Below, one piece after another: positions 3,527 through 20,338 of a DNA stretch of 20,338 bases. The position numbers and the translations under genes are program-made. The DNA is from Hylemonella sp. UBA2468. GTDB taxonomy: Bacteria > Pseudomonadota > Gammaproteobacteria > Burkholderiales > Burkholderiaceae_C. The notes below the pieces were generated by a model, which was not told the origin of the DNA, searched no databases, and saw only the letters and a program-made list of their open reading frames with translations. The DNA lies in contig DDPM01000020.1 in the NCBI GenBank assembly GCA_002342165.1, forward strand, positions 362 to 20,699, in the 5' to 3' direction. Position 1 is the stretch's first letter. The number at the start of each line of letters is the position of its first letter.

Positions 3527-3540
3527 GTGGGCAACACCCC

Positions 3541-3600: not shown

Positions 3601-3660
3601 CAACCTGAGTCAGGTTGACTGCCAAGTCAAGGATTTTAGTCCAAGGCCTTGGTGCTTGGC
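3601..3660 (-). other. Tandem hairpins downstream of the dctP stop codon
   Basis: Immediately after dctP are two further self-complementary elements. The first is CCAAGGCCTTGG, a 12-bp perfect palindrome at 3641-3652, lying within an outer pair GCCAAG/CTTGGC (3621-3626 with 3655-3660). The second is CAACCTG-AGT-CAGGTTG at 3601-3617, a seven-pair stem with a three-base loop. In the dctP transcript they would form 3'-end structures ahead of the terminator, and such stems can protect the upstream message from 3' exonucleases. Confidence 0.5.
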
Positions 3661-4779
3661 TTAAGCTTTAGGAGCGGCCTTCTTGGCAAAGAAATGGTCG
3701 TAGGCCATTTTGAAATCGACCATGTAGTCGCGCTGCCATTGGCCGGCGTTGATGGCGTAGGCACGCTGAGAATCCAACACCTTTTTGAACAAAGCGTTCT
3801 CAGAACCTTTCTTCTCAATGATCTTGTCCCAAGAGGCCAACTGAGCCTTCAAGATGGCATCTGGTGTTTTGTAAAACTTGATGCCCGATTTTTTCAACTC
3901 AATATAGTCTTTGGTATTGCGGTCAATGGCTTTCCAGCTCATGTCGGCACTGGCGGCCTGAACAGAGTAGTCAATGATGGAGCGCAATTCAGCAGGCAGC
4001 GTGTTGAGTTTGGTCTTGTTGAACAAAATTTCAAACTGCTCGCCGGACTGATGAAAGCTCTGCAGCATGCAGTTTTTCACCACATCAGGGAAACCCAAGA
4101 TGCGGTCAGAAGTGGCGTTGTTGAATTCGGCACCGTCAATCAAACCACGGTCCAGGGCCGGCACAATTTCGCCACCGGGCAGAGGGTTCACCGCAGCGCC
4201 CATGTCGGTGTACATGTCAACCGCCAAACCGACGGTACGGAACTTCACGCCCTTCATTTGGCTCACGTTGGAGATGGGCTTTTTGAACCAGCCAAAAGGC
4301 TGGGTAGGCATGGGGCCATACAAGTAAGACACCACATCCATGCTCAGCGAAGCGTAAATTTCTTCCAGCAACGCTTTGCCGCCGCCGTAGTTGTGCCAAG
4401 CCAGCACCATGTTGGGGTCCATACCAAACGCAGGGCCAGAACCCCACAAGGCCAGAGCGGAGTTTTTACCGTAGTGGTAAGCCACCACACCGTGGCCTCC
4501 ATCCAAGGTGCCCTTGTTCACGGCTTCCAGCAATTGGAAAGCAGGCACCACGGAGCCAGATGGCAGCACTTCAATTTTGAGTTTGCCACTGGCCATGTCA
4601 TTGACTTTTTTGGCAAAGTCGTTGGCGTATTCGTGAAAGATGTCTTTTGCAGGCCATGTACTTTGGAAACGCAAGGACACGGTTTGGGCCGTGGCAATCA
4701 TGGGTGCGGTCATCGCGCCAGCAGCTATGGCAGCGCCTTTAAGCAGACTGCGACGACGAGGTGTGGTGGTGGTATTCAC
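3661..4779 (-). CDS. dctP: TRAP transporter substrate-binding protein, TakP-like, with a Tat signal
   Basis: This is the periplasmic binding protein of the TRAP system. I prefer the GTG at 4779 because GGAGA lies six bases upstream; the in-frame ATG at 4815 has a poorer site and would put 12 residues before the signal. The 372-residue product starts with a twin-arginine signal (PRRRSLLKG, residues 7-15), a hydrophobic run, and a likely cleavage at ATA-Q near residue 31. The mature part has WGSGPAFGMDPN (112-123), FGWFKKPI, FRTVGLAVDMYTDMG (170-184) and PGGEIVPALDRGLIDGAEF (191-209). These resemble the TakP/2-oxoacid and lactate branch, where the Arg of FRT and the acidic residue of the GAE motif contact the ligand or its cation. 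Substrates such as pyruvate, other 2-oxoacids or lactate are inferred, not proven. Confidence 0.9.
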   Translation of the reverse strand: MNTTTTPRRRSLLKGAAIAAGAMTAPMIATAQTVSLRFQSTWPAKDIFHEYANDFAKKVNDMASGKLKIEVLPSGSVVPAFQLLEAVNKGTLDGGHGVVAYHYGKNSALALWGSGPAFGMDPNMVLAWHNYGGGKALLEEIYASLSMDVVSYLYGPMPTQPFGWFKKPISNVSQMKGVKFRTVGLAVDMYTDMGAAVNPLPGGEIVPALDRGLIDGAEFNNATSDRILGFPDVVKNCMLQSFHQSGEQFEILFNKTKLNTLPAELRSIIDYSVQAASADMSWKAIDRNTKDYIELKKSGIKFYKTPDAILKAQLASWDKIIEKKGSENALFKKVLDSQRAYAINAGQWQRDYMVDFKMAYDHFFAKKAAPKA

Positions 4780-4826
4780 AGGTATCTCCAAAGTTTGAGT
4801 TGCGGAATGCCTCATTCTGAACGTGT

Positions 4827-4894: not shown

Positions 4895-4982
4895 ACACGG
4901 TCGAGCTGGTATATCTTTGATCCATAACTGGCCTAGTGCCTTTAAGATGCTTCTTATAAATCACTCAAACAAGGAGACTTAC

Positions 4983-5768
4983 ATGGATCGTCGTAATTTC
5001 TTTCAAGGTTCCGCCTTAATGGCGACAGGTGCAGTGGTGGGATGTGCCACCCCCGGCATCGCGCAACAGCAAGTCAAAACACCCTTCAACGTGCCTGCCA
5101 CCCATATACCCATTGTGGGTAGCGAAGACATGTTTCCTGTGCGTCGCATCTACTGTATTGGCCGCAACTATGCCGCGCACGCCCGCGAAATGGGTTCCGA
5201 CCCTACACGTGAACCCCCTTTCTTTTTTCAAAAACCCACCGATGCCATTCAATATGTGGCCGCGGGTACAGTGGCAGACCACCCCTACCCCACTCTGACC
5301 AAAAACTACCACTACGAGGCTGAACTCGTAGCCTGCTTGGGCAAGGGTGGGCGAGATATTCCTCCGGATCGCGCTCTGGATTTGGTCTATGGCTATTCGC
5401 TGGGTTTAGACATGACCCGCAGGGACTTGCAACGCGCTTTGGGCGATGAGAAAAAACCTTGGGAAATCGGCAAAAGCTTTGACCGCTCCGCCCCAATTGG
5501 TGCGGTGCATAAGGTTGGGCTAACAGGGCACTTCATTAAAGGCTCCATATGGTTGAAGGTCAACGGCCAGACTAAACAAAACGCCAACCTGAACCAAATG
5601 ATCTGGTCGGTGGCAGAACAAATCAGCCGACTGTCTCAGGCCTTTGAGCTGTTTCCGGGCGACATTATTTATTCAGGCACGCCTGAAAACGTAGGCCCAG
5701 TGGTGCGTGGCGATGTGATTGAAATGCACATAGACGGCCTGCCTAACTTGAGCGTGAAGATCGTTTAA
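4983..5768 (+). CDS. Exported FAH-family hydrolase (acylpyruvase/fumarylpyruvate hydrolase-like)
   Basis: This 261-residue enzyme of the fumarylacetoacetate hydrolase superfamily would hydrolyse an acylpyruvate-type C-C bond to release pyruvate. The ATG at 4983 has AAGGAG six bases upstream; longer in-frame starts lack such a site. The N-terminus is a signal: MDRRNFFQGS with twin arginines, a hydrophobic stretch, VVGC fitting a lipobox at Cys21, and an alternative signal peptidase site at GIA-Q (residue 27). The core begins with RIYCIGRNYAAHAREM (55-70), whose His67 and Glu70 match the catalytic HxxE dyad of FAHD1. Metal ligands would be Glu112, Glu114 and Asp143, with Lys164 in IGKSFDRS and a C-terminal SGTPENVGPV. 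Members of this family are normally cytoplasmic, so export is unusual. It is divergent from dctP and followed after six bases by the rhodanese gene. Confidence 0.88.
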   Translation: MDRRNFFQGSALMATGAVVGCATPGIAQQQVKTPFNVPATHIPIVGSEDMFPVRRIYCIGRNYAAHAREMGSDPTREPPFFFQKPTDAIQYVAAGTVADHPYPTLTKNYHYEAELVACLGKGGRDIPPDRALDLVYGYSLGLDMTRRDLQRALGDEKKPWEIGKSFDRSAPIGAVHKVGLTGHFIKGSIWLKVNGQTKQNANLNQMIWSVAEQISRLSQAFELFPGDIIYSGTPENVGPVVRGDVIEMHIDGLPNLSVKIV

Positions 5769-8933: not shown

Positions 8934-9503
8934 ATGCTGCCGGAACTTAAATTGCGCCACATGGGCATGTTTGTATGGGACATTCAAGCCATGTCGAGCT
9001 TCTACCAAGAGGTGCTCGGCTTTGTGGTGACCGATGCGGGTCATGTTCGGGATCACGATGTGGTGTTTTTGAGCCGCGACCCCCATTCACATCACCAGCT
9101 GGTGATGGAAACCGGTCGGCCGCCCGGCTCAGGGCCCGGATTTGGCTTGCAACAAATTTCGTTTCAAGTGAGTAGCCTGCAGGACTTGCGGGTCATGAAC
9201 AAGCTATTGATCTCGCGAAAAGATGTCACCTTGATTCAAACCGTAGACCATGGAAATTCCTGGTCTTTGTACTTTAGGGATCCTGAGGTCAACCGGGTAG
9301 AGGTCTACCTTGACACCCCGTGGCACGTGGAACAACCCTTTCTGGAGCCCCTAGATTTAAGCCTGAACGATGAGAATATTTTTCAAAGTACCCATGCGCG
9401 CCTGGTCGGCAAACCCGGCGTGATGCCCATGGCGCAGTGGCAGCAGGAAATGGCCGCCAAATTAAAGGCGCGGCTGGGTTATCAATCGGCGGTGACTTTG
9501 TAA
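8934..9503 (+). CDS. Single-domain VOC (glyoxalase/extradiol-type) protein
   Basis: This is a 189-residue vicinal-oxygen-chelate protein, starting at an ATG with AAGGA seven bases upstream. LRHMGMFVWDIQAMSSFYQEVLGF (7-30) is the first VOC module with ligand candidate His9. VVFLSRDPHSHHQLVME follows, then LQQISFQVSSLQDLR, and FRDPEVNRVEVYLDTPW (114-130) with ligand candidate Glu123. Position 74, where most metal-binding members have histidine in the second module, is glutamine here, while His53/His54 are extra. A long C-terminal tail of about 55 residues follows the domain. It could be a dioxygenase- or isomerase-type enzyme acting on an aromatic intermediate. Its last 22 bases overlap the end of the convergent Bug gene. 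Confidence 0.85.
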   Translation: MLPELKLRHMGMFVWDIQAMSSFYQEVLGFVVTDAGHVRDHDVVFLSRDPHSHHQLVMETGRPPGSGPGFGLQQISFQVSSLQDLRVMNKLLISRKDVTLIQTVDHGNSWSLYFRDPEVNRVEVYLDTPWHVEQPFLEPLDLSLNDENIFQSTHARLVGKPGVMPMAQWQQEMAAKLKARLGYQSAVTL

Positions 9504-10477
9504 CGTGCCACCGAACCGACCCACCGCTCTACCTCTTCTTTCAAAAAGGCTTGTTGTTGGTTGGGGCTGATGTTCAAAATACGTCCGCCATCGCGGTCGA
9601 CACGTGCCACAAATTCAGGTTCTTTGTTGATGGTGGCCAACACTTCACGCAACTTGGCCACGATGGCGGGCGGTGTGCCCGCTGGGGCAAAAATACCAAA
9701 CCAGCTCTCGCCATCAAATTTCACCACACCTGTTTCATTAATGGTGGGCAGATTAGGCATTTGAGGGTTACGAGCAAGCGAAGAAACCGCCAAGCCCTTG
9801 AGTCTGTTGACTTGAACATGGCCCTTGGAGGCAGAAATATTGTCAAACATCACATCCACGCGTCCAGCAAACATTTCTTGGTGGGCCGGACCCGCGCCTT
9901 TAAATGGCACATGCACCATTTCCAGGCCCAATGACCCTGCCAATATGGCGCCCCACACATGCTGCAAGGTGCCAATACCAGCAGAGCCATAAGTGAGCTT
10001 GCCCGGACGCTCTTTGGCATAGGCCACAAACTCTGCCAAATTGTTGACAGGCAAGTCTGCGCGTGTGACCAACATAAAGGGATAGGCCGATACAAAACCC
10101 AAAGGAATAAAGTCGCGCTCGGGCTCGTAGGACAAGTTTTTAATGAGGGCCTTGTTCATCACCATATTGAAGATGCCGCCCACCATCAGCGTGTAACCGT
10201 CGGGTGTTGAACGCGCCACAAACTCAGTGCCTACCAAAGAGCCCGCACCCGTTTTGTTTTCCACAACCACCGATTGCTTCAACAATTCGGTCATGCGCCC
10301 AGCCACATGACGCCCCAAAATGTCCGTGCCCCCACCCGCACCTTGGGGCACGACCATTTTGATGGGCCGGTTGGGATAGTCTTGAGCCCAAGCGGATCCC
10401 ATGTTTAGGGCTTGAAAAGCCCATAGGAAGATCACCGCAATCGCACCATTAGCCTTTAAAGATGTCATGTCACGCAT
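9482..10477 (-). CDS. Bug-family (TctC) periplasmic substrate-binding protein
   Basis: This is a 331-residue extracytoplasmic solute receptor of the tripartite tricarboxylate transporter/Bug family, which is greatly expanded in Burkholderiales. The ATG at 10477 has AGGAGG eight bases upstream. The signal peptide ends at AWA-Q (about residue 31) and is followed by the hallmark DYPNRPIKMVVPQGAGGGTDILGR. VENKTGAGSLVGTEFVARSTPDGYTLM, YGSAGIGTLQH and HVPFKGAGPAHQEMFAGRVDVMFDN are all family-typical. Bug proteins bind carboxylates, including aromatic ones. No tctA or tctB membrane gene is in the window, so it is an orphan receptor that must share a permease elsewhere or act in sensing. It is the last gene of the minus-strand catabolic operon, 49 bases after the FAH-family gene. 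Confidence 0.93.
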   Translation of the reverse strand: MRDMTSLKANGAIAVIFLWAFQALNMGSAWAQDYPNRPIKMVVPQGAGGGTDILGRHVAGRMTELLKQSVVVENKTGAGSLVGTEFVARSTPDGYTLMVGGIFNMVMNKALIKNLSYEPERDFIPLGFVSAYPFMLVTRADLPVNNLAEFVAYAKERPGKLTYGSAGIGTLQHVWGAILAGSLGLEMVHVPFKGAGPAHQEMFAGRVDVMFDNISASKGHVQVNRLKGLAVSSLARNPQMPNLPTINETGVVKFDGESWFGIFAPAGTPPAIVAKLREVLATINKEPEFVARVDRDGGRILNISPNQQQAFLKEEVERWVGSVARYKVTAD

Positions 10478-10526
10478 GGGTCACCCCTCCTATTTATTCA
10501 GTCCGTTAAAAGTGGCAAAGTGAGGC

Positions 10527-11381
10527 TTAAATCTCATCCACCACTGGGTTGGACAAAATACCAAGACCTTCAATTTCGACTTCGCAGACATCGCCTTTTT
10601 TCATAAACAGAGGTGGCTTGCGAACAAAGCCCACACCAGCGGGTGTACCTGAAATAATGAGGTCTCCCGGCTCCAAAGCAAAGGGCTCGGAACATACTGA
10701 AACCAGAGTGGCGACATCAAAAATCATGTCGCTGGTGCTGGTGGTCTGCACCACTTGACCGTTGAGGCGGGTTTGCAGCTTCAAGCCGGTGGCCCCTGGC
10801 GACAGCTCGTCAGCAGACACAAACTCTGGGCCAAAAGATCCGGAAGCGTCGAAGTTTTTGCCCATCATCCACTGAGTGGACTTGAACTGGTAATCGCGCA
10901 AAGAGCCGTCATTGAAAATGGAGTAGCCCGCCACATGGTCCAGAGCATGGGCTTTATCAATGTATCGGCCCGCTTTGCCAATCACCACGACCATTTCGCC
11001 TTCATAGTCAAACTGCTCAGACACCTTGGGGCGAAGCAAGGCCTGACCGTGACCCACCCAAGAACTGGGGTAGCGGTGGAATAAAACCGGATAGGTTGGT
11101 GGCTGAAAATTGCCCTCTGCCGCATGGTCTTTGTAATTCAAGCCCACCGCAATGGCTTTGGCGGGATGGGCTACAGGGGGCAAATACTGCACCGTAGCCA
11201 AAGGAATGCGGTGACGCGCCTTTTGTCCTGCAGTGTGTGCCGCCGCCATGGCCTCAGGGCCAGCGCGCAGCAGCGCGTCTAGATCAGTCGGGAAACCCAA
11301 GGCGGTGAGGTTCACCACTTCAGAACCCAAACGCAAACCTAAAGCCGCTTGCCCTTGGTATTGAAAAGCCATCAGTCTCAT
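10527..11381 (-). CDS. FAH-family hydrolase/hydratase (second copy, cytoplasmic)
   Basis: This 284-residue protein belongs to the fumarylacetoacetate hydrolase superfamily, in the group annotated as 2-hydroxyhepta-2,4-diene-1,7-dioate isomerase or 2-keto-4-pentenoate hydratase. It has the N-terminal domain that the exported paralogue at 4983 lacks, and no signal. AIAVGLNYKDHAAEGN has the HxxE pair His86/Glu89. FDYEGEMVVVIGK supplies metal ligands Glu127 and Glu129, and FNDGSLRDYQ supplies Asp158. GKNFDASGSFGP has Lys175, and SGTPAGVG lies near the end. All expected active-site residues are present. The start ATG at 11381 has GAGGA nine bases upstream. Standing in the same operon as an extradiol dioxygenase, it most likely hydrolyses or isomerises the ring-opened product to central metabolites. 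Confidence 0.9.
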   Translation of the reverse strand: MRLMAFQYQGQAALGLRLGSEVVNLTALGFPTDLDALLRAGPEAMAAAHTAGQKARHRIPLATVQYLPPVAHPAKAIAVGLNYKDHAAEGNFQPPTYPVLFHRYPSSWVGHGQALLRPKVSEQFDYEGEMVVVIGKAGRYIDKAHALDHVAGYSIFNDGSLRDYQFKSTQWMMGKNFDASGSFGPEFVSADELSPGATGLKLQTRLNGQVVQTTSTSDMIFDVATLVSVCSEPFALEPGDLIISGTPAGVGFVRKPPLFMKKGDVCEVEIEGLGILSNPVVDEI

Positions 11382-11419
11382 ATCAAATATTCCTCAAATC
11401 AAAACTTGCCCTTAATGAA

Positions 11420-12445
11420 TCAATTCTTGGCGTGTTGAACGGCGCGGTTGTAGTAGCTCAGGTCCAAAAACTTGTCGACCGCTGGCGCCTGGCCTCCCCA
11501 TTGGCCTTCTATTTCGGCACGCAATGACAACACATTGCGGAATCCTTGCAAATCAAAGGCACAGTCTTGGCTCAAGCCGCTACCCTTGGTTGTCAGGGCT
11601 TGGTAGGTGAGGTCAGCAATTCGGTCGTCGAGCTTCAACTCGCGCTTGAGAACCTGCAAGGCAAGGGTTTTCTGCGTGGGGTCTTGAGCAGCACGACAGC
11701 CTTCAATGTAGGCTGCAATATAGCGCTCCATTGCTGAAGCATTTTTTTGTGCCCAGGGACGCATGACAAAAATACCGCTGGCTTGGTACGGGCCATACAA
11801 ATCAATGGTCAACCCCAGGCTTTTGGCACCACGGTCTTTGGCAATGAAGTTCCATGGCGGATTGAGCAAGGTCGCTGCACCATCAGGAGTATCTAGGCCT
11901 TTGGTACGAGCCTCAGATCCACCCAATGGGTGGAGTTTGTAATCTCGGCCTTCGGCAAGCCCAGCGTTTTTAAGCATCTTGCGACCGATCAGGGCATAGG
12001 CTGTGTTGGGGGCATCCACCACATAGGTGCGCCCCCTCATGTCGGCCAGTGTGCGAATGTCTTGGCGCACCAGCACTTCGTTCATGCCGCCATCACCTCC
12101 GGCCACAATCACCACATCGTTTTTGGCCACTTCAATCATGGCTACGGCGTTGTCTACCGCGGCATGGGCAATTTCAAAACGACCAGCAGCCAAACCAGTT
12201 CGTTGCTGGTCGGAATTAGGGGTGAACTGAAGCTCGGTCGTGATGCCGCGGCGAGCAAAGTAACCTTTCTCAATCGCCATATAAATAGGCAAGTTGCTGC
12301 CACCTCTAAACACATTGACGCGCAAGGTCACAGGGTCGTTGGCAGGTGCTTGAGCAGTGGGCGTTGCACAGCCGGACAAGACTATGGCCGACAGTACAGC
12401 CGAAGTGGCTAATGCGAATTTGAATAGGGGGCGGAACTTGTTCAT
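11420..12445 (-). CDS. NMT1/SsuA-like ABC substrate-binding lipoprotein (orphan)
   Basis: This 341-residue periplasmic binding protein is of the type that serves nitrate, sulfonate, taurine and thiamine-precursor (NMT1/SsuA/ThiY) importers. The N-terminus is a lipoprotein signal with lipobox LSGC, giving lipid-modified Cys26. FRGGSNLPIYMAIEKGYFARRGITTEL is the family's opening block, followed by GLAAGRFEIAHAAVDNAVAM, ADMRGRTYVVDAPNTAYALIG, DGAATLLNPPW and YQASGIFVMRPW. The matching permease and ATPase are absent from the window. It starts 15 bases after the extradiol dioxygenase stop and is followed by the FAH-family gene, so it belongs to the catabolic operon. The ligand is unknown, possibly an aromatic or heterocyclic acid. 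Confidence 0.85.
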   Translation of the reverse strand: MNKFRPLFKFALATSAVLSAIVLSGCATPTAQAPANDPVTLRVNVFRGGSNLPIYMAIEKGYFARRGITTELQFTPNSDQQRTGLAAGRFEIAHAAVDNAVAMIEVAKNDVVIVAGGDGGMNEVLVRQDIRTLADMRGRTYVVDAPNTAYALIGRKMLKNAGLAEGRDYKLHPLGGSEARTKGLDTPDGAATLLNPPWNFIAKDRGAKSLGLTIDLYGPYQASGIFVMRPWAQKNASAMERYIAAYIEGCRAAQDPTQKTLALQVLKRELKLDDRIADLTYQALTTKGSGLSQDCAFDLQGFRNVLSLRAEIEGQWGGQAPAVDKFLDLSYYNRAVQHAKN

Positions 12446-12460
12446 GTGTAACTTTCTAAA

Positions 12461-13408
12461 TTAAGGAATGGCATGTGCGATAAATGGTGCTGGCGCAGGC
12501 TCTCCCCACTGAGAGTTCAAACCCTCTTCAGGCGTCATGTAGTTGGTGGGCGCATGGATGTTGAGGACATCACTGTCGCTCCAGTGTTCGTGCACGCGTC
12601 CCCAAGGGTCTTTCCAGTAATCGAACACTTGGCTGCCTAGCACGTGCCGGCCAATGCCCCACACGTGTTCGTATTTTTGGGCGTCTTGCAAGTGCTTGTG
12701 TCCCAGCATGATGTCGTCAATGTCTTGCGCCTCAAAAGACAAATGGTTCAAGCCGGTCAAGGGGCCCTTGATGCACAAAAAGGTATGGTGATCTACATAG
12801 TCTTCACCACGGTCCACACGGTTAAAAGAGGCAATCACGTTGTCACGGCTCCCTGCATAGACTTCATCGGAACACACTAGGCCAAACATTTCCCGGTACC
12901 ACTTGACCTTTTCACCCGCATCAGGCGTCAGGATGACGGCATGCGCAGCCCGCTTGACTTGGGAGGGGCCTTGAGTCAATCGCATCAAGGAGCCGGCGCG
13001 GTTGTATTTTTGGTCGCCGGTATTGACCACGGTTTTGCGAACGGGCAATGGCGTCAATTGCTCCATGCCGCACATCACCTCCATTTGATAGCCAAATGGG
13101 TCAGAGATCCGAACGCGCTTGCCTCCCCCGGGCTCGTCCACATGCTCTATACCCGTTGCACCAGGAGCTTTGGTAAAGGCTTTAAGGTCGTCTTCATCGC
13201 GAACAAAAAAGCACAGCCCCATAAACTTAGAGGGACCTAAATGCGTGACGTGAATGTGGTGGTTGGGGTCTGTACCCCGCATGTACAAGGCATTTTGGGT
13301 GCGCTCCGCGCGCTGCATGCCAAATTGGGTTAAAAACTCTTCCGCCTCATCCAAGTCGGGGGATTGCAGCCGGCCAAACGCCAAGTCGGTCACTTTTACA
13401 TAGGACAT
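12461..13408 (-). CDS. Two-domain extradiol ring-cleavage dioxygenase (VOC, type I)
   Basis: This 315-residue protein is a type I extradiol dioxygenase that would open a catechol-like ring next to the hydroxyls using Fe(II) and O2. The N-terminal VOC domain (1-115) lacks metal ligands, as usual, and the C-terminal domain (150-280) holds the active site: His156 in KRAAHAVI, His222 in GLNHLSFEAQD and Glu274 in RVHEHWSD. The second-shell residues His207, His255 and Tyr264 (FDYWKDPWG) also stand at spacings like those I recall for BphC (146, 195, 210, 241, 250, 260). The catalytic set therefore looks complete. AAGGAG precedes the ATG. It sits 38 bases after livF and 15 bases before the NMT1-like gene. 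The substrate is not determined by sequence. Confidence 0.9.
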   Translation of the reverse strand: MSYVKVTDLAFGRLQSPDLDEAEEFLTQFGMQRAERTQNALYMRGTDPNHHIHVTHLGPSKFMGLCFFVRDEDDLKAFTKAPGATGIEHVDEPGGGKRVRISDPFGYQMEVMCGMEQLTPLPVRKTVVNTGDQKYNRAGSLMRLTQGPSQVKRAAHAVILTPDAGEKVKWYREMFGLVCSDEVYAGSRDNVIASFNRVDRGEDYVDHHTFLCIKGPLTGLNHLSFEAQDIDDIMLGHKHLQDAQKYEHVWGIGRHVLGSQVFDYWKDPWGRVHEHWSDSDVLNIHAPTNYMTPEEGLNSQWGEPAPAPFIAHAIP

Positions 13409-13446
13409 CGTGGTCTCCTTACTTCATTACATTCCGTACATGCAGC

Positions 13447-14190
13447 TCACGCATGGGCTGCCTCGCCCAAGTAGGCCTGCCGAATATGGGGTTGGCGCAT
13501 CAACTCTTCAGGGTCTCCCATCGACACAATGCGCCCACCCTCCATGATATAAGCGCGCTGGGCTACAGCTAAAGCGCGCGCCGCGTTTTGTTCGATCAAC
13601 AAAATCGACACACCGCTTTTGTGGATTTCAGCAATCGCCTCAAACACTTGCTCTACCACTGAGGGTGCCAAGCCCAAAGAGGGCTCATCAATCAACAGGA
13701 GTTTGGGCTGCGCCATGAGCGCGCGTCCAAAAGCCACCATTTGCTGCTGGCCACCCGACAAGGTGCCAGCCTGCTGCCAGAACCGCTCTTTCAAAATAGG
13801 AAACAGTGCAAACACCCGCTCCAAGGTTTGCTCTTTAAAGGGGCGGGCCATGGACCGGTAGCAGCCCATGTCCAAATTTTCTTCCACTGTCATACCGCCA
13901 AACAGCAAGCGCCCCTCAGGCACGATGGACACATCTCGGTTGCACATGTGCGTGGCGTTCAGTGACGTGACGTCCTCTCCACGCCATATCAAGCGACCCG
14001 AACGTACGGGCAGCAGCCGCATGACGGTATTGATCAGGGTGGTTTTGCCAGCACCATTAGGGCCCACCATGGAGACCAGCTCGCCTTCTTCAATATGAAA
14101 GCTCACATCCCATAAGGCGGGTGCGTCGCCGTAAGACACGTTGACTTGTTCTGCACGGAACAAGGCGTCTGAATGCGAAGTGGCGGTCAT
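13447..14190 (-). CDS. livF: Branched-chain-type ABC transporter ATP-binding protein LivF
   Basis: This is a 247-residue cytoplasmic ATPase of the LivF group, one of two ATPases that power the LivHM permease pair. GPNGAGKTT (43-51) is Walker A, LSGGQQQ (144-150) is the ABC signature, and LLLIDEPSLGLAP (164-176) is Walker B with the catalytic Glu169. SIVPEGRLLFGGMTVEENLDMG is the LivF-type Q-loop region. A complete set of motifs implies an active enzyme. The start overlaps the LivM-LivG stop by ATGA, so translation is coupled. The gene is followed after 38 bases by the extradiol dioxygenase, which links this importer to aromatic catabolism. Confidence 0.95.
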   Translation of the reverse strand: MTATSHSDALFRAEQVNVSYGDAPALWDVSFHIEEGELVSMVGPNGAGKTTLINTVMRLLPVRSGRLIWRGEDVTSLNATHMCNRDVSIVPEGRLLFGGMTVEENLDMGCYRSMARPFKEQTLERVFALFPILKERFWQQAGTLSGGQQQMVAFGRALMAQPKLLLIDEPSLGLAPSVVEQVFEAIAEIHKSGVSILLIEQNAARALAVAQRAYIMEGGRIVSMGDPEELMRQPHIRQAYLGEAAHA

Positions 14191-15917
14191 GACTGAGACG
14201 TTCCCAAATAAGCACTGATCACAGCAGGGTCTTGCATAACCTCTTTAGGCAAACCACTGGCGATGATTTGCCCATAATTCAGCACAATCAAGCGGTCACA
14301 CAATTCTTGCACGGCCCGCATGTTGTGTTCAATAAACAAAATAGTGGAGCCACGCTGTCGGATTTCTCGCACCATGGCAATGGCGTGGTTAATTTCAGAT
14401 GGCGTTAACCCTGCCAAGACCTCATCAAGCATGACCAACTGAGGGGCAGAAGCAAGAGCACGTGACAGCTCTAGAAATTTGCGCTGATGCAAATTGAGTT
14501 CAGAGGGCAAAGCCCGCGCGCGTTCTGCCAAGCCCACAAATTCCAACCAATACATGGCCTGATGGGCAGCCAACTTGCGGCTCAACTGTTGCCCTCCAAA
14601 CATACCCGCCAAGGTGGCGTTTTCGAGCACGGTCAAGTTGGTAAAAGGCTTGGGGATTTGGTAGGTACGTGCAATGCCTGAGCGGGCAGCTCGGTGCGCG
14701 GGCATGGGCACCAAGTCTGTTCCATTAAGAAGCAAGCGACCGCCCGTGGGCTTGTAAAAGCCGCTGATGACATTGACCATGGTGGACTTGCCTGAGCCGT
14801 TAGGACCAACCAAGCCCAAAATTTCACCGCGGCGAACCTCCAAACTCACGTTAGAAAGCGCCTTGACCCCACGAAACGCCATGGACACATCGTCCGCTTG
14901 CAGCAACACCTCTCCAGCCGCGCCCTTTCTCACTATAACCGCCGGAGCTATAGGCTCAGGTAAGGCAGAGGGTTTTTGATAGCGGCGCCACCTTTTTAAG
15001 ATCTGACCCAAAATACCTTCGGGCATGAATAAGATGACCAAAATTAGGGTCAAGCCCACCGTAGCGCGACCCACCACCGCAAAATCACCGGCGGTGAAGG
15101 CATAAAGCAAAGCCGTAATGGCGGTTGCACCCACCGCGGGACCCAACCAATGCCGCGAGCCGCCCAACACACTCATCAGCACCACGTTCAGCGGCACCAC
15201 AATGTTGAACACCTCGCTGACCGTGACGTAGGACACAAACAGCGCATGCACACCACCGGCCACTCCCGCAAAAGCACAAGAAATGGCCAGCGCCTGCAAC
15301 TTGTAACGAAATGTGGGCACCCCCTGGACTTCGGCCACGTCTTCGTCGTCATGGATAGCAAAGAGGCCAGAGCCCAAACGGTTGCAGTAGATGTAATAGG
15401 CCCCCCATACGCACAGCACCGCCAATGCCAGCGCCAGCAGGTAAAAGGTTGCAGAGGGTGATGGCCCTAAATTGGGAATGGGCACCGCTGACAGGTACAC
15501 CCCGGGGCCCCCATCGATCGGGGTGTTCAAAATAATGGTGGCTATCACAAATGTCACCGCCAAGGTAAGTAAGCCAAAAAGTTCGCCCCGCAGGTTGCGC
15601 AGGCGAAACACAATGGCACCCAAACCCACGCCAAACAGAGCCGGCACCAAGGCCGCAAAAGGCAAGGTGTACAAAAACGGCCAATTGAACTTGCCACTGA
15701 GCACCGCGGTGGTGTAAATGCCCAGGCCAAAAAAGGCACCATGCCCGAATGAAAAATAGCCCGAATAGCCTGACAAAATATTCCAGGAAGTGGCCAGCAC
15801 CACCCAATGGAAAATCAAATACAAAAAGGATTCGTAAAATGCGGGAAGCTGCAGCATCGGCAAGCAGGCCAAAGCGGCGGCCACCATCGCAAACACCGTC
15901 AATACTTGCCGGTTCAT
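14187..15917 (-). CDS. livMG: Fused permease-ATPase LivM-LivG
   Basis: This 576-residue protein joins LivM (about residues 1-305) to LivG (about 338-576) through a basic, proline-rich linker. I chose the ATG at 15917, one base after the livH stop. The permease part shows SGYSGYFSFGHGAFFGLGIYT (49-69), the classic LivM block, with many membrane segments and VLMSVLGGSRHWLGP near 246-260. The ATPase part has Walker A GPNGSGKST (371-379), Walker B LVMLDEVLAG with Asp498 and Glu499, and the switch His531. Its signature is LNLHQRK (475-481) in place of LSGGQ; a non-canonical signature of this kind is, as I recall, usual in this LivG branch. Such fusions are common in Burkholderiales. The product would import aromatic or amino acid-like solutes. 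Confidence 0.93.
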   Translation of the reverse strand: MNRQVLTVFAMVAAALACLPMLQLPAFYESFLYLIFHWVVLATSWNILSGYSGYFSFGHGAFFGLGIYTTAVLSGKFNWPFLYTLPFAALVPALFGVGLGAIVFRLRNLRGELFGLLTLAVTFVIATIILNTPIDGGPGVYLSAVPIPNLGPSPSATFYLLALALAVLCVWGAYYIYCNRLGSGLFAIHDDEDVAEVQGVPTFRYKLQALAISCAFAGVAGGVHALFVSYVTVSEVFNIVVPLNVVLMSVLGGSRHWLGPAVGATAITALLYAFTAGDFAVVGRATVGLTLILVILFMPEGILGQILKRWRRYQKPSALPEPIAPAVIVRKGAAGEVLLQADDVSMAFRGVKALSNVSLEVRRGEILGLVGPNGSGKSTMVNVISGFYKPTGGRLLLNGTDLVPMPAHRAARSGIARTYQIPKPFTNLTVLENATLAGMFGGQQLSRKLAAHQAMYWLEFVGLAERARALPSELNLHQRKFLELSRALASAPQLVMLDEVLAGLTPSEINHAIAMVREIRQRGSTILFIEHNMRAVQELCDRLIVLNYGQIIASGLPKEVMQDPAVISAYLGTSQS

Positions 15918-15918
15918 A

Positions 15919-16776
15919 TTAAATTTTTCCCGGCCGCAGCAACAACACGGCAATCAACAAGGAAAAAGACACCAAAGGCGCCCAAGCCGGTGCCGTGATG
16001 GCCATGGTGGTGGCCTCAGACAAGCCAATCACAATACCTGCGATCAGCGGACCTAAAGGGTTACCCAAGCCGCCGATCATGACGGCTGAAAACACCACGC
16101 CAATCCAGCCGTAAATTTGCGAAGGGGCCAAGGTGAAACTCAAAGCCAAACACACGCCCGCCACTCCCGCAAATGCAGAAGCCGCGCCGGACAACCACAG
16201 GGCCAGCATGCGCTCGTTAACCCCAAATGCTGCCGCCATGCGTGGGTTTTCAGACATGGCGCGCATGGCTTTTCCTGTTGAGGTGTAGCGCAATACGACC
16301 CATGTGCCCACACACAAGGCTAGAGCCAACAGCAACGTCAACAGTTCCGGCAACGGAATGTAAAAGAGACCGACCTTGAATTTGACTTCAGCGTAATGGG
16401 ACTCCAGCTTGCGATAGTCTGCAGTCCATACATACTGAATCAAAGATTCGATGATGGCCAAAAGGCCAAAGGTGACCAGCAATGAATTGAATGGCGTGAC
16501 CTTGAATTTGGCAAACACCCAATGCATAGCCATGCCGATCAAGAAAAATCCCGGCACAATGATGACCAAAGTGACCATCGGGTCCACCCCAAACGAGTTG
16601 GACATTTGGTAAGTGAGATACGCCCCTAAAAAAGCAAGCCCAAAGTGGGCCAAGTTGATTTGCTTGAGCATGCCCCATGACAAGCTCAAACCTAAACCCA
16701 GCAAACCGTAAAGCCCACCTATAAACAGCCCGGACAGCAGGGACTGCCCGAGCAACTCTAAGCCTGGAAGCTGCAT
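15919..16776 (-). CDS. livH: Branched-chain-type ABC transporter permease LivH
   Basis: This is a 285-residue integral membrane protein of the LivH family with about eight hydrophobic segments. SGLFIGGLYGLLGLGLSLSWG (15-35), then QINLAHFGLAFLGAYLTY, RYTSTGKAMRAMSENPRMAAAFGV and SAVMIGGLGNPLGPLIAGIVIG near 231-252, are the standard LivH landmarks. The EAA-like contact loop is the segment around GKAMRAMSENP. It begins four bases after the binding protein stop and ends one base before livM-livG, so the transport genes are tightly coupled. No clear ribosome binding site of its own is visible, consistent with coupling. Confidence 0.94.
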   Translation of the reverse strand: MQLPGLELLGQSLLSGLFIGGLYGLLGLGLSLSWGMLKQINLAHFGLAFLGAYLTYQMSNSFGVDPMVTLVIIVPGFFLIGMAMHWVFAKFKVTPFNSLLVTFGLLAIIESLIQYVWTADYRKLESHYAEVKFKVGLFYIPLPELLTLLLALALCVGTWVVLRYTSTGKAMRAMSENPRMAAAFGVNERMLALWLSGAASAFAGVAGVCLALSFTLAPSQIYGWIGVVFSAVMIGGLGNPLGPLIAGIVIGLSEATTMAITAPAWAPLVSFSLLIAVLLLRPGKI

Positions 16777-16780
16777 TCAA

Positions 16781-17986
16781 TTAAGGGGCTTGTAGCCTAG
16801 CTCCAGGTTTTGCTGAGGCGCGAGGCCATACCACCACCCATTCGCCGTTTTGCACCTGCTTGACCTTGGTCATGTCGTCGCCGTAATTGTTGACACCATC
16901 AAAACGCATGGGGCCCTGAATGGTGTTGACCGTATTCTTTTTGAGCCAGAGTGATATAGCACGGTCATCCAAACTTTTGGTAGCAGTGACCGCAGCCTCT
17001 AAGACTTGCCAAGCGGCAAGAGATGCTGCTGCTTGAGTATCCACAAATATGTCAGGCAATCCAGCCTTGGCAGCCCGCTCGTTGTAGATTTTGGCAAATT
17101 CTGTGGCACCGGTATTGCTCATCATGGGAGCATGCTGCTCAAAGATGGTCATGGCCAGAGCGTTTTTGGCATCGGGTGACTTGAGCATGGGCCCTGGGGA
17201 TGGCAAGAAGTGGAACATTTGGGGCGGGGTGTAGTCGATTTTTTTCATCGCATCCAAAAGCATCATGCCTTCTAGGGCAATCACACCACCCCAAATAAAG
17301 TCGGGCTTGGCTTCTTTAAGACGGCTTGCAATGGCGCCAAAATCCCGGTTACCAAACTCCCACTCCAAGTACAGAACTTCGTTCAAGCCGCGTTTTTTGG
17401 CTATTTCGCGGGCTCCCAAGGACATGAAGTGCACCGAAGGAAACTTGGACGTGACGATGGCAATGGTTTTAGGCGGCTTGGGGCCTGAAGACAATGCATC
17501 TAGCACCAAGTTAGGGCCAGACACCTCAGGCGTGGCGCCAGTGGCCCAAGTAGGAAACTGCATGTCGTAGCGGGCCAAATTGGGAATACCGAAAGTGTGG
17601 TGAATCAGCACTTTGTTGTAGCGTTGTGCCACGCCCATGGCAGAAAGAATATTGGCCGTGGCGTAGGGGCCAATCAGCAGATCGGCTTTGTCTACTGTGA
17701 CGATTTGTTCGTACAAAGTACGTGCCATGTCGGGCTTGGACTGGTCGTCTTTCAAAATCCATTCCACAGGACGGCCCAACAATCCGTTCTTTTTGTTGAG
17801 CTCTTCCACATAAATTTCACCCACTAGCTTATGGATCATGGCAGTGGCAGAGAGTGGCCCCGTTAAGGCCAAAGTACCGCCTACTTTGACAGGGGTACCC
17901 GATGGCGCAGCCATGGCAGCCGCGCTCAACACAAGCGCAGCAAAGCCCAGCACCCTGGTAACCAATTTTTGAATGAAACTTTGCAT
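16781..17986 (-). CDS. LivK-type periplasmic binding protein for the ABC importer
   Basis: This is a 401-residue periplasmic type I binding protein of the branched-chain amino acid/aromatic group. AGGAGG stands six bases before the ATG at 17986. The signal peptide is residues 1 to about 26 (LSAAAMA-A). VKVGGTLALTGPLSATAMIHKLVGEIYVEELNKKNGLLGRPVEW (33-76) is the hallmark opening block, and LIGPYATANILSAMGVAQRY, WGGVIALEGMMLLDAMKKI and VDTQAAASLAAWQVLEAAV follow. Relatives bind amino acids, amides or aromatic acids. Placement at the head of livH, livMG and livF makes it the cognate receptor of this importer. A 97-base gap separates it from the upstream amidohydrolase gene, so an internal promoter is possible. 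Confidence 0.92.
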   Translation of the reverse strand: MQSFIQKLVTRVLGFAALVLSAAAMAAPSGTPVKVGGTLALTGPLSATAMIHKLVGEIYVEELNKKNGLLGRPVEWILKDDQSKPDMARTLYEQIVTVDKADLLIGPYATANILSAMGVAQRYNKVLIHHTFGIPNLARYDMQFPTWATGATPEVSGPNLVLDALSSGPKPPKTIAIVTSKFPSVHFMSLGAREIAKKRGLNEVLYLEWEFGNRDFGAIASRLKEAKPDFIWGGVIALEGMMLLDAMKKIDYTPPQMFHFLPSPGPMLKSPDAKNALAMTIFEQHAPMMSNTGATEFAKIYNERAAKAGLPDIFVDTQAAASLAAWQVLEAAVTATKSLDDRAISLWLKKNTVNTIQGPMRFDGVNNYGDDMTKVKQVQNGEWVVVWPRASAKPGARLQAP

Positions 17987-18083
17987 GATCAGCCTCCTGG
18001 TTAGCCTTTAAAAGATGGGCTGAATCATCCAGTTTAAGGACTCACCCAACAATTAGCGTAAACCTTAATAAGGAAGTTACGTA
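17987..18083 (-). other. 97-base gap between the amidohydrolase gene and the liv binding protein gene
   Basis: This is the largest gap inside the long minus-strand gene row. It contains a small palindrome, CCTTA-A-TAAGG (18063-18073), just after the amidohydrolase stop, and the strong AGGAGG site for the binding protein. The palindrome lacks a following T-tract, so it is not a convincing terminator. A weak TTGTTG/GATGAT pair with a 17-base spacer can be drawn on the minus strand but is not persuasive. An internal promoter is possible but not shown. Confidence 0.3.
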
Positions 18084-19448
18084 CTAGTGCTGCAAAGCCA
18101 CAAGCTTTTGAAGGTCATGAACGATGCGGCCACCCGACTGCTGCAGACTGTTTTGGCGTTCGGCCAAGGCACCAAACAACAATTTGCCGTGGCGCTTTTG
18201 AATGGCCCCCTCCACCAACACCGTGTCGATATTGGACAAGCTGGTTTGAGTAACCACAGCAGCCACAGGGTCATGCACGGGCAACATATTCAAATCGTCC
18301 ATACGGACCATCACCACGTCGGCTTGCTTGCCGGGCGTGAGCGATCCAATGCGGTCTGACATTTTGAGCATCTTGGCGCCTTCTATGGTGATCCAAGACA
18401 AGGCTTCTCGGGCAGTGATGGTGGATGTATCTGGCAGCTTTTGGTGCAGTTGCTTGGATTCGGCATTGTCAAAAGCGCGCTGTGTGGCCATGGCCATGCG
18501 CGCCACCGTGAACATATCACCGCTGATGCAAGATTCCAAATCCACGCCCAAAGAGGGCTGATGCCCCATTTTGCGCAGCCTGCCCGTGATGGCAAAGCCA
18601 TGGCCTTGAAACATTTCCGTCTCGGGGGTAAGTGAAAAGCTCACACCTTGATCCAGCATGAAGCGCAACTGCGCGTCTGTGAGGTCATTGCCGTGGACAA
18701 TGTTGTTGTTGTCGCCCAGCAAGCCTTCTTGGGCCAAGCGGTCCCAGCCGTCGGGCACACGGGCTGCTCCACCGGCACAGTGCATGCTGGCAATCAAACC
18801 GAATTCGCGCGCCAATTTGAAGTCGTCCACCGCCACGTCGTAGGTGGAGTAATGCGGCCCCAAAATCGCCAAGCCAAGACTTACCAAGCTTTCGGATGAA
18901 GTGAATCTTGTTTTAAGCAAACGCTCGACTTCGCTGCGGGGGTGTGGCACTTCCCAGAAAGGTTTTTGACCTGGCTTGGGGTCGGGCTTGGGTGAGCCAT
19001 GAAAAAAAACCGCACGAATGCCCGACTCCACCAAACCGTCAATACCCGCATCGGTATGAGCAGGTGTAGGGTTGTTGTGACACCAGTCTGCCAAAGTGGT
19101 GGTGCCGCAATTGATTTGATTGAGCGCACCAACGAGGTTGGCAATGTAAATGTCTGAGGGCTGAAACAAAGTGGCCAGACCCGCATGCATTTTTTTAAAG
19201 TACTCCAGAACCGTCCAGTTGGAGGCCAGGCCGCGTAAGCCGGTTTGCCATGTATGCATATGGGCATTGACCAAGCCGGGAATGACCACGGTACCGCGCG
19301 CGTCGATCACTTGTACGTCATCTGCTTGGATGCGAGGGGCAACTGCCTCGATGCGGTTGCCGTCTATCAAGACATCGCCCGTGGGCAGATCGCCAATTTT
19401 GGGGTCCATGGTAACCACGGTGCCGCCGCTTATCAGAATTTTGGTCAT
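18084..19448 (-). CDS. AtzA/TrzA-like metal-dependent amidohydrolase
   Basis: This 454-residue member of the amidohydrolase superfamily (chlorohydrolase/deaminase branch, COG0402-like) would remove an amino, halide or other leaving group from a ring, or open an amide. The ATG at 19448 has AGGAG six bases upstream and overlaps the oxidase stop as ATGA. VIPGLVNAHMHTWQTGLRG gives His63 and His65, ASMHCAGG gives His223, VHGNDLTD gives His252, and GVDLESCISGDMF gives Asp303, which together suit a single-metal site. The HxxE glutamate used by AtzA, TrzN and many deaminases is Gly226 here, and the loop after strand 7 reads TPETEMFQGHG rather than the usual SN motif. This suggests a sub-branch with different chemistry. 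The substrate is unknown; its operon points to an aromatic or N-heterocyclic compound. Confidence 0.88.
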   Translation of the reverse strand: MTKILISGGTVVTMDPKIGDLPTGDVLIDGNRIEAVAPRIQADDVQVIDARGTVVIPGLVNAHMHTWQTGLRGLASNWTVLEYFKKMHAGLATLFQPSDIYIANLVGALNQINCGTTTLADWCHNNPTPAHTDAGIDGLVESGIRAVFFHGSPKPDPKPGQKPFWEVPHPRSEVERLLKTRFTSSESLVSLGLAILGPHYSTYDVAVDDFKLAREFGLIASMHCAGGAARVPDGWDRLAQEGLLGDNNNIVHGNDLTDAQLRFMLDQGVSFSLTPETEMFQGHGFAITGRLRKMGHQPSLGVDLESCISGDMFTVARMAMATQRAFDNAESKQLHQKLPDTSTITAREALSWITIEGAKMLKMSDRIGSLTPGKQADVVMVRMDDLNMLPVHDPVAAVVTQTSLSNIDTVLVEGAIQKRHGKLLFGALAERQNSLQQSGGRIVHDLQKLVALQH

Positions 19449-20338
19449 ATCGAACTCCTAATGGTGTTGAGGGGATAATTTCGCAGAATATCGGGTGACA
19501 GTTGGCGCACATCCGACAAGCCACACAACTGCAGCGTGCGATGCAACTCGTCTCGCAAAATATCCAAAGCACGGTCAACGCCTTCAAAACCACCGCCCAT
19601 AGCGCCGAACAATGTGGCTCGACCGAGCAAAACGCCTTGAGCGCCCAAGGCTATGGCTTTGGCCACATCTGCACCGCGACGGATACCGCCATCTAAAAGC
19701 ACCGGCGCCTTACCAGCAGCCCCCGCCAAAACTTCAGGCAAGGCGTGCAAAGAGGCCCGTACACCATCGAGTTGGCGACCGCCATGGTTGGACACCACCA
19801 AGGCGTCGCACCCCATGGCCACCAAACGCTCGGCATCGTCTTGCCGATGAATGCCTTTGACAATGAGTTTGCGCGGCCAGCGGTCGCGCACTTCGGCCAT
19901 GCGGCTCCAGTCAAAGCCCGCGTCGTAAGCTTTACCCACAGAAGATGCCAAAGCTTTTGCGGAGGTAGGACGCTGGTTCAGGCCTTTCAAGTTGACCAGT
20001 TGGGGCAAGCCGTTGATCAACATATCCCATGCCCAGCGGGGTCGACTTGCAAAGTCCAGCACATTGCGTGGCGTGTAGCGAAAAGGAACCGAAAAATGGT
20101 TGCGCATGTCCCGCTCACGCTTGCCGCCCACAGGCAGGTCCAATGTGATGACCAAGGCCTCAAAGTCAGCAGCCAAAGCGCGGTCTAAAAGACTCCAGAA
20201 AAAATCTTGGTTTTTAAAAATATAGGCCTGAAACCAAAGACGTCCTGGCGCTTTTTGGGCCATGGTTTCAATAGTGGTGGTGGCACTGCTGGACAAGGTG
20301 TACGGAATGCCGTACTTAGAGGCTGCTTGTGCTAAGGC
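19445..20338 (-). CDS. FMN-dependent alpha-hydroxyacid oxidase/dehydrogenase, partial
   Basis: The window edge cuts the N-terminus, so 297 residues are visible of a family about 380 long. The frame stays open to the edge: ALAQAASKYGIPYTLSSSAT is continuous with the rest, so an internal TTG at 20296 is not the true start. WFQAYIFKNQ, then VITLDLPVGGKRERDMRN, LIVKGIHRQDDAERL, VVSNHGGRQLDG and LLDGGIRRGADVAKAIALGA are the FMN-binding and catalytic blocks of lactate, glycolate and mandelate oxidising enzymes. The His and Arg of SNHGGRQLDG are the base and substrate-carboxylate ligand. It would oxidise a 2-hydroxyacid to a 2-oxoacid. It is coupled to the amidohydrolase by a four-base ATGA overlap. 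Whether it is lactate- or mandelate-like cannot be settled from the visible part. Confidence 0.92.
   Translation of the reverse strand, partial: ALAQAASKYGIPYTLSSSATTTIETMAQKAPGRLWFQAYIFKNQDFFWSLLDRALAADFEALVITLDLPVGGKRERDMRNHFSVPFRYTPRNVLDFASRPRWAWDMLINGLPQLVNLKGLNQRPTSAKALASSVGKAYDAGFDWSRMAEVRDRWPRKLIVKGIHRQDDAERLVAMGCDALVVSNHGGRQLDGVRASLHALPEVLAGAAGKAPVLLDGGIRRGADVAKAIALGAQGVLLGRATLFGAMGGGFEGVDRALDILRDELHRTLQLCGLSDVRQLSPDILRNYPLNTIRSSI

What the first reader, a model, noticed from the sequence alone, without database searches (positions are those of the whole stretch)
9482..20338. Ten-gene operon that may encode an undescribed aromatic or N-heterocycle degradation pathway
Seen: ten same-strand genes, mostly with gaps below 50 bases or overlaps. 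They encode a 2-hydroxyacid oxidase, an AtzA-like amidohydrolase, a complete Liv importer, an extradiol dioxygenase, an FAH-family hydrolase and two extra binding proteins. Known: extradiol cleavage followed by FAH-type hydrolysis is the core of several meta pathways (homoprotocatechuate, gentisate-like). Inferred: the oxidase works on a hydroxyacid side chain and the amidohydrolase removes a nitrogen or halide substituent before or after cleavage. I know of no named pathway with exactly this set. No ring hydroxylase is visible, so it may lie beyond the right edge, or the substrate may enter already hydroxylated.
Basis: partly seen in the sequence, partly recalled or inferred. Interest (0 to 1): 0.7.

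Follow-up and report, generated by a model that had tools for sequence, protein, structure and literature searches.

The report
Aromatic-compound operon tied to hydroxyquinol pathway
This bacterial operon couples an importer to ring-opening enzymes for an unknown aromatic molecule, and comparison with related genomes suggests that it is one half of a pathway whose other half, a known route through hydroxyquinol, lies elsewhere in the same genome.

Summary
The ten same-strand genes are real; a sister MAG (L007) has all ten in order at 93-97% identity. The set is a mosaic, not a stand-alone meta pathway. In 399 sampled family genomes the amidohydrolase (AHY) co-occurs with this LivK (10 seen, 1.0 expected) and with maleylacetate reductase (16 seen, 3.95 expected), but with the dioxygenase only in the window's own genome. 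In relatives AHY sits between a GLYR-type dehydrogenase and TctC in 16 of 18 neighbourhoods, 10 of them with maleylacetate reductase in view. The sister keeps that cluster on another contig with AHY's place empty; its only AHY is in the dioxygenase operon. Another genome carries both sets within 17 kb. I read the window as half of a split pathway with two ring cleavages. AHY has H223-x-x-G226 where solved relatives have H-x-x-E, which argues against simple nitrogen or halide removal. Substrate unknown. Eight paper searches found no description. New variant of a known kind.

The parts
19445..20338 (-). FMN-dependent 2-hydroxyacid dehydrogenase, 5' end cut by the window edge and contig gap; full homologue in L007 (396 aa)
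   Evidence: Pfam FMN_dh 326.9 bits; L007 homologue best PDB match (S)-mandelate dehydrogenase 322.9 bits; gap and contig end
18084..19448 (-). AHY: TRZ/ATZ-type amidohydrolase, NCBIfam subfamily PRK08204, with H223-x-x-G226 in place of H-x-x-E; H63, H65, H223, H252, D303 kept
   Evidence: 599.7 bits against cut-off 391; alignments; AtzA/TrzN/Vcz fold
16781..17986 (-). LivK-type periplasmic binding protein of the Liv importer found in hydroxyquinol clusters
   Evidence: Peripla_BP_6; 21 of 399 family genomes; co-occurs with AHY and MAR
15919..16776 (-). LivH-type permease
   Evidence: BPD_transp_2 133.1 bits
14187..15953 (-). Fused LivM permease-LivG ATPase (588 aa from TTG; an ATG 12 codons downstream is a likelier start)
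   Evidence: the fusion is also in L009, L110, L146-L149 and Rhizobium L157
13447..14190 (-). LivF-type ATPase
   Evidence: best NCBIfam model LivF 246 bits, below cut-off 441
12461..13408 (-). EDO: two-domain type I extradiol dioxygenase
   Evidence: invariant H156, H222, E274 with H207, H255, Y264; model pLDDT 93.8, nearest PDB 3b59 and homoprotocatechuate 2,3-dioxygenases
11420..12445 (-). NMT1/THI5-like binding protein with a lipobox-like N-terminus (by eye)
   Evidence: 53-56% homologues near AHY in 3 of 18 neighbourhoods, L112, L117, L121
10527..11381 (-). FAH-family hydrolase/decarboxylase, substrate open
   Evidence: PDB HpcE 180.4 bits; best NCBIfam model a 3-deoxy-L-rhamnonate-type hydrolase, 191.5 bits against cut-off 500
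9482..10477 (-). TctC-type binding protein
   Evidence: TctC 223.6 bits
8235..8891 (+). SnoaL_4 protein; convergent here, but its 62% homologues in L009 and L010 follow the TctC at the end of the operon, so possibly part of the module

Best explanation
This is one half of a split pathway for import and catabolism of a hydroxylated aromatic compound. Shown: in relatives AHY and the fused-LivMG Liv importer (and, in 3 of 18 neighbourhoods, the NMT1 protein) belong to gene clusters with hydroxyquinol 1,2-dioxygenase, maleylacetate reductase and 3-oxoadipate enzymes; the sister genome and one further genome keep such a cluster elsewhere with AHY's place empty. Shown: the window operon adds an extradiol dioxygenase (EDO) with an intact iron site, a FAH-family enzyme and a mandelate-dehydrogenase-like flavoprotein. 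Inferred mechanism: Liv with one or both extra binding proteins imports the substrate; an FAD hydroxylase and a molybdenum hydroxylase encoded elsewhere hydroxylate it; EDO opens one catechol-type ring and FAH splits or decarboxylates the product; the FMN enzyme oxidises a 2-hydroxyacid side chain or fragment; AHY, probably not by ordinary hydrolysis, helps to make or process the 1,2,4-trihydroxybenzene-type part, which is cleaved by the intradiol enzyme and passes through maleylacetate and 3-oxoadipate to acetyl-CoA and succinyl-CoA. The substrate, the order of steps and AHY's reaction are unknown.
For: Family sample of 399 genomes (cut-offs EDO 1e-60, AHY 1e-110, LivK and MAR 1e-120): AHY in 19, LivK in 21, MAR in 83. 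AHY-LivK 10 (1.0 expected, p 1e-9; 9 without G000, p 1e-8); AHY-MAR 16 (3.95 expected, p 2e-9); LivK-MAR 15 (4.4 expected, p 4e-7). By genus (n 141): 7 against 0.94, 10 against 3.8, 9 against 3.5 (p 1e-6, 2e-4, 6e-4). AHY and MAR within 7 kb in 10 of 16; AHY and LivK within 15 kb in 5 of 10. GLYR-AHY-TctC order in 16 of 18 AHY neighbourhoods. Sister G399: PcaI-PcaJ-PcaF-GLYR-[no AHY]-TctC-GLYR2-MAR on contig C27, its single AHY in the EDO operon; G400 likewise. G403: hydroxyquinol genes, AHY, Liv, PcaF and EDO within about 17 kb of contig C10, same strand except a nitroreductase-like gene. L148, L149: HQDO-CitLy-CaiB-TctC-LivKHMGF-MetE-YciI-MAR. HQDO and MAR identities: PDB hydroxyquinol 1,2-dioxygenase 283 bits, maleylacetate reductase 389 bits. 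In 3 of 4 plasmid regions that I fetched (of 5 records at 60% or more) AHY lies beside annotated maleylacetate reductase and intradiol dioxygenase: Paraburkholderia, Bosea, Skermanella.
Against: EDO itself is not tied to the hydroxyquinol set at family level: EDO-AHY 1 seen, 0.29 expected; EDO-LivK 2, 0.32 expected; EDO-MAR 3, 1.25 expected. So EDO's place in the same pathway rests on the operon in a few related genomes and on G403. The empty AHY place is seen in G399 and G400, not in G000, whose contig C10 ends just after GLYR. G400, G401 and G402 have no MAR at E 1e-40. In G000, 70.8% complete, the best intradiol hit is weak (4.8e-22). In five of the 16 AHY-MAR genomes, G000 among them, the two lie on different contigs, and in G132 they are 2.5 Mb apart. 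The fourth plasmid region, Variovorax, shows neither MAR nor an intradiol gene within 9 kb. FAH and FMN_dh are absent from the EDO loci of L009, L010, L011 and L013. The p-values ignore kinship between genomes. No expression or enzyme data.
Confidence: 0.6

Rival explanations
1. A self-contained meta pathway: side-chain oxidation, amidohydrolase removal of a substituent, extradiol cleavage, FAH hydrolysis, all inside the operon.
For: Gene content and tight spacing; FAH lies within 6 kb of EDO in 44 of 66 related loci examined, an FAD monooxygenase in 36, both in 33.
Against: Of the 22 loci without FAH, 14 fall in the window's own half of the EDO tree (several are short contigs), and L009, L010, L011 and L013 lack it; AHY lacks the hydrolase glutamate; AHY and Liv are tied to another pathway; no hydroxylase recognised in or beside the operon.
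Confidence: 0.15
2. An N-heterocycle pathway like the kpi 4-hydroxypyridine route, in which ring cleavage, hydrolysis and a FAH step act on a dihydroxypyridine.
For: kpi combines a Pfam01979 protein and a FAH-family protein (PMC7356986); the molybdenum hydroxylase on G000:C62 belongs to a class that often acts on N-heterocycles (the class habit is recalled).
Against: The paper puts KpiC nearest to enamidase and found no homologue of known ring-opening dioxygenases in kpi, whereas here AHY is PRK08204/TRZ-ATZ and a separate extradiol protein is present; the linked cluster leads to 3-oxoadipate, a carbocyclic endpoint.
Confidence: 0.1
3. A flavonoid-like two-ring pathway: EDO cleaves one ring as FdeC/IfcB are thought to do, and the remainder goes through hydroxyquinol.
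For: IfcB/FdeC are glyoxalase-type proteins acting after an FAD hydroxylase, in a Comamonadaceae strain (PMC11069340); a hydroxyquinol-type intradiol enzyme coexists with EDO in 5 of 6 genomes at E 1e-65 or better.
Against: ifc uses cupin proteins, none of which is among the window's genes; no FdeC or IfcB sequence was available to compare.
Confidence: 0.12
4. Unrelated genes gathered by chance, with the Liv system serving amino acids.
For: Lineages differ in FAH, FMN_dh and the Amidohydro_2 type.
Against: A Liv gene lies within 3 kb of EDO in 8 of 11 rows of a clade with 100/99 support; AHY-LivK co-occurrence.
Confidence: 0.08

Closest known systems
Hydroxyquinol / maleylacetate / 3-oxoadipate pathway
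   Same: AHY, Liv and NMT1 relatives sit in clusters with hydroxyquinol 1,2-dioxygenase, maleylacetate reductase and Pca-type enzymes
   Different: Those core enzymes are not in the window operon; the textbook pathway (recalled) has no AHY-type protein or extradiol enzyme
Homoprotocatechuate meta pathway (HpaD, HpaG/HpcE)
   Same: EDO fold and FAH family
   Different: EDO 73 bits against HpaD cut-off 321.4, FAH 170.4 bits against HpaG-C cut-off 276.4
fde/ifc flavonoid and isoflavone degradation
   Same: FAD hydroxylase plus glyoxalase-type dioxygenase, found in Comamonadaceae (PMC11069340, sections read)
   Different: No cupin partner in the window; Liv and AHY instead, and hydroxyquinol genes elsewhere
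kpi 4-hydroxypyridine pathway
   Same: A Pfam01979 protein and a FAH-family protein together (PMC7356986, passages and one section read)
   Different: KpiC is itself reported as the ring-cleaving enzyme and is enamidase-like; here a separate extradiol protein is present
TRZ/ATZ amidohydrolases (AtzA, TrzN, isocytosine/8-oxoguanine deaminases)
   Same: Fold and metal-ligand positions
   Different: H-x-x-G replaces H-x-x-E in 23 of 24 rows

Membership tests
Type I (VOC) extradiol dioxygenases | 2-His-1-Glu iron ligands plus second-sphere His/His/Tyr | tested here: met
   H156, H222, E274, H207, H255, Y264 invariant in 33 of 33 rows; fold match to homoprotocatechuate 2,3-dioxygenase, E about 1e-20; roles of the residues recalled
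HpaD homoprotocatechuate 2,3-dioxygenase | NCBIfam equivalog score above cut-off | tested here: not met
   73 bits against 321.4
HpaG/HpcE decarboxylase-isomerase | NCBIfam domain score above cut-off | tested here: not met
   170.4 bits against 276.4
TRZ/ATZ hydrolytic amidohydrolases | HxH, His, His, Asp metal-site residues | tested here: met
   H63, H65, H223, H252, D303; roles recalled
TRZ/ATZ hydrolytic amidohydrolases | catalytic Glu in H-x-x-E | tested here: not met
   H-x-x-G in 23 of 24 aligned rows; the exception L065 is a different protein, 26% identical; G aligns with E of 3hpa, 7ww2 and 3lnp (the AtzA and 4dzh alignments printed there do not cover the site)
Hydroxyquinol pathway locus | hydroxyquinol 1,2-dioxygenase and maleylacetate reductase in the same operon | tested here: not met
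   absent from the window; MAR on G000:C62; in G403 both lie on the EDO contig
Hydroxyquinol-linked AHY/Liv module | AHY and LivK co-occur with MAR across genera | tested here: met
   kinship not corrected beyond counting genera
fde/ifc flavonoid pathway | FdeC/IfcB-type dioxygenase with FdeE/IfcA hydroxylase and cupin IfcD | tested here: inconclusive
   no cupin or FAD hydroxylase among the window's genes; FdeC/IfcB sequences not available to compare
kpi 4-hydroxypyridine pathway | enamidase-like KpiC ring-cleaving enzyme | not tested
   KpiC sequence not available; subfamily assignment of AHY differs (against PMC7356986)
Any named pathway | activity on a defined substrate | not testable with these tools
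   needs assays

The most novel reading that the evidence does not exclude
AHY is the founding member of a non-hydrolytic branch of the AtzA-like amidohydrolases, for example a dehydratase or oxygenase that forms or processes a trihydroxybenzene, conserved from Alpha- to Betaproteobacteria beside hydroxyquinol genes. The window operon would be a mosaic in which this enzyme and its importer were joined to an extradiol dioxygenase to degrade a two-ring or side-chain-bearing aromatic compound by two different ring cleavages. An oxygenase in this fold has a precedent in KpiC, a Pfam01979 protein reported to cleave 3,4-dihydroxypyridine (PMC7356986).
Probability: 0.2. Interest if true: 0.75.

Novelty: new variant of a known kind. 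Interest (0 to 1): 0.48.

Why it matters
An amidohydrolase subfamily that the libraries name only 'hypothetical protein' (PRK08204) or 'amidohydrolase family protein' (plasmid records) gains a testable pathway context and a specific active-site oddity. The empty AHY place in the partner cluster shows how split catabolic pathways can be recovered in fragmented environmental genomes, where reading one contig alone suggested a self-contained route.

Tried and rejected
Nitrogen or halide removal by AHY: set aside because of the H-x-x-G motif. Missing hydroxylase beyond the right edge: set aside from the sister locus. Orthology of AHY with KpiC: not supported by the paper's own placement of KpiC; sequences not compared. 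Search for named homologues of EDO: 3870 proteins at E 1e-3, of which the 120 listed carry generic names or none. PDB and NCBIfam gave no exact name for EDO. Paper searches on the gene set found nothing describing it (open-licence library only). Promoter and terminator scans were uninformative. FMN_dh relatives at 57-60% lie in other contexts, beside an FAD-monooxygenase-like gene (by eye) in L142-L144 and beside FAH and TctC in L145, which did not fix its role. Plasmid contexts of EDO were viewed for 4 of 166 records, of AHY for 4 of 73 and of LivK for 2 of 8. My simple ORF caller picks starts and overlaps by codon score; names such as PcaJ, CaiB, Dabb, GLYR and nitroreductase in neighbourhoods rest on similarity to a few checked or annotated proteins, or on eye, and are approximate.

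The AHY motif alignment left out 21 duplicate loci (L001, L005, L091-L109). A1 holds 13 rows chosen from the 24. A2 holds the window and 35 of the 67 usable EDO references; A3 is A2 without L082, L083 and L128.
Full report
OBSERVATION. LivM and LivG are fused in one 588-aa ORF. Spacing is tight, with one gap of 97 bases between the amidohydrolase (AHY) and LivK. The FMN_dh gene is cut: a run of N begins just past the window and the contig ends 241 bases beyond it. The genome (G000) is 70.8% complete in 204 contigs.

RELATED LOCI. A scan with the dioxygenase (EDO) gave 75 loci in named genomes. L007, a MAG labelled Hylemonella gracilis, has all ten genes in order at 93-97%, and upstream a second TctC and an Amidohydro_2 protein nearest to ACMSD, then divergent genes. 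L009, L010 and L011 keep Liv, EDO and NMT1 at 77-88%, and L009 and L011 also AHY; no FAH or FMN_dh match was found in those loci, and they carry a different Amidohydro_2 protein. In a tree of 70 EDOs the eight rows with a Liv gene within 3 kb fall in a clade of 11 rows with 100/99 support; the other three are L012, whose contig starts at EDO, and L014 and L015, short contigs that show no Liv. L016 shows only a LivK-type gene, and in L013 other genes stand between LivF and EDO.

AHY AND LIV BELONG TO A HYDROXYQUINOL MODULE. In 399 sampled family genomes AHY is in 19, LivK in 21, maleylacetate reductase (MAR) in 83 and EDO in 6, at cut-offs I chose (1e-110, 1e-120, 1e-120, 1e-60). AHY-LivK co-occur in 10 (1.0 expected, p 1e-9), AHY-MAR in 16 (3.95, p 2e-9), LivK-MAR in 15 (4.4, p 4e-7). 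EDO-AHY is 1, the window's own genome (0.29 expected, p 0.26); EDO-LivK 2 (0.32, p 0.035); EDO-MAR 3 (1.25, p 0.11). By genus the first three stay significant (p 1e-6, 2e-4, 6e-4). These p-values ignore kinship. AHY and MAR are within 7 kb in 10 of 16; in five, G000 among them, they are on different contigs, and in G132 2.5 Mb apart. Of 18 AHY neighbourhoods, 16 have the order GLYR-AHY-TctC, 10 show MAR, 3 show Liv genes and 3 an NMT1 protein of 53% or more (some contigs are short). The intradiol enzyme and MAR were checked against the PDB: hydroxyquinol 1,2-dioxygenase 283 bits and maleylacetate reductase 389 bits; PcaF and PcaI passed NCBIfam cut-offs. In L148 and L149 the fused-LivMG Liv cassette stands inside a cluster HQDO-CitLy-CaiB-TctC-LivKHMGF-MetE-YciI-MAR. 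Of four plasmid regions fetched around AHY relatives of 60% or more (five such records), three show annotated maleylacetate reductase and intradiol dioxygenase beside AHY: Paraburkholderia, Bosea, Skermanella; the Variovorax one does not within 9 kb. In two Rhizobium plasmids the same Liv type (49-53%) goes with a different VOC protein (22-24% to EDO) and a FAH gene.

THE SPLIT. The sister genome G399 has, on contig C27, PcaI-PcaJ-PcaF-GLYR-TctC-GLYR2-MAR, the order of L111 but without AHY, plus an intradiol enzyme, a two-subunit molybdenum hydroxylase and a PRK06126-type FAD monooxygenase. Its single AHY is in the EDO operon. The single AHYs of G000, G400 and G401 are likewise in the EDO operon; G402 has none at E 1e-60. 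The G400 cluster (L136) has the same empty place. In G000 the place cannot be seen, because contig C10 ends just after GLYR. G403 (L013) carries PcaI-PcaJ-MAR-HQDO-GLYR-AHY, then Liv, PcaF and EDO within about 17 kb of one contig, same strand apart from a nitroreductase-like gene. The window's own genome has the molybdenum and FAD hydroxylases with MAR on C62 and PcaIJF-GLYR on C10. An intradiol enzyme at E 1e-65 or better is present in 5 of 6 of these genomes, the exception being G000, so EDO does not replace it. Against this, G400, G401 and G402 lack MAR at E 1e-40.

AHY ACTIVE SITE. AHY scores 599.7 bits to PRK08204 (cut-off 391), a subfamily described as hypothetical protein. Its model (pLDDT 86.8) matches AtzA, Vcz and TrzN folds. 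Of 24 aligned rows, 23 have H-x-x-G where solved relatives 3hpa, 7ww2 and 3lnp have H-x-x-E; the exception is a different protein. Three plasmid AHYs keep HCAG or HQGG. That this glutamate is the proton carrier in AtzA-like hydrolases is recalled knowledge. Ordinary deamination or dehalogenation is therefore unlikely but not excluded.

EDO, FAH, FMN_DH. EDO has an intact type I extradiol site (model pLDDT 93.8) and is not assignable to HpaD. In 66 related loci, FAH is within 6 kb of EDO in 44, an FAD monooxygenase in 36 and both in 33; of the 22 without FAH, 14 are in the window's own half of the tree, so FAH here may have been acquired separately. Its best scores in my set outside L007 are to FAH genes in two AHY loci, L118 (47%, 280 bits) and L120 (43%, 252 bits), only just ahead of L033 (248 bits) and L061 (245 bits). 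FMN_dh is nearest (S)-mandelate dehydrogenase.

MECHANISM. I propose import by Liv, hydroxylation by enzymes encoded elsewhere, one extradiol cleavage by EDO with FAH, one intradiol cleavage of a hydroxyquinol-type part, and 3-oxoadipate as an end product. Gene linkage is shown; substrate, order and AHY's step are inferred.

LITERATURE. PMC7356986: outline, passages and one section read. PMC11069340: outline and four sections read. Other papers were seen only as search listings. Nine answered searches of an open-licence library listed no paper that describes this gene set; most listed papers were not opened.

VERDICT. Real, more than chance, partly misread. New variant of a known kind; interest 0.48.

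Noticed in passing
4917-5768: A second FAH-family protein whose N-terminus looks like a twin-arginine signal (RRNFFQG...), which would make it exported, unusual for this family.
   Followed up: no
993-4815: A TRAP transporter set (DctP, DctQ, DctM) on the minus strand; the DctM ORF is 636 aa with a long low-complexity stretch before its best-matching part.
   Followed up: no
L009:10979-12082 and L016:2728-3822: Amidohydro_2 (ACMSD-like) proteins with twin-arginine-like signals near EDO, suggesting an exported decarboxylase-type enzyme.
   Followed up: partly
8934-9503: Single-domain glyoxalase gene whose end overlaps the end of the operon's TctC gene on the other strand; in my loci an 87% homologue in L007 and one 42% hit in L048.
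   Followed up: partly
L139:667-2793: A polysaccharide-deacetylase/PuuE-like protein and an LVIVD-like protein (both by eye, untested) divergent from the sister operon; possible extra pathway members.
   Followed up: no
L155:2473-10116 and L157:2488-10122: Rhizobium plasmids carry the same Liv importer type (fused LivMG in L157) with a VOC protein, a cupin and an annotated enolase in one run, with CMD and FAH genes upstream: a second uncharacterised ring-cleavage-type operon.
   Followed up: partly
L013: The MAG record labelled Bordetella parapertussis may be misnamed; not tested.
   Followed up: no
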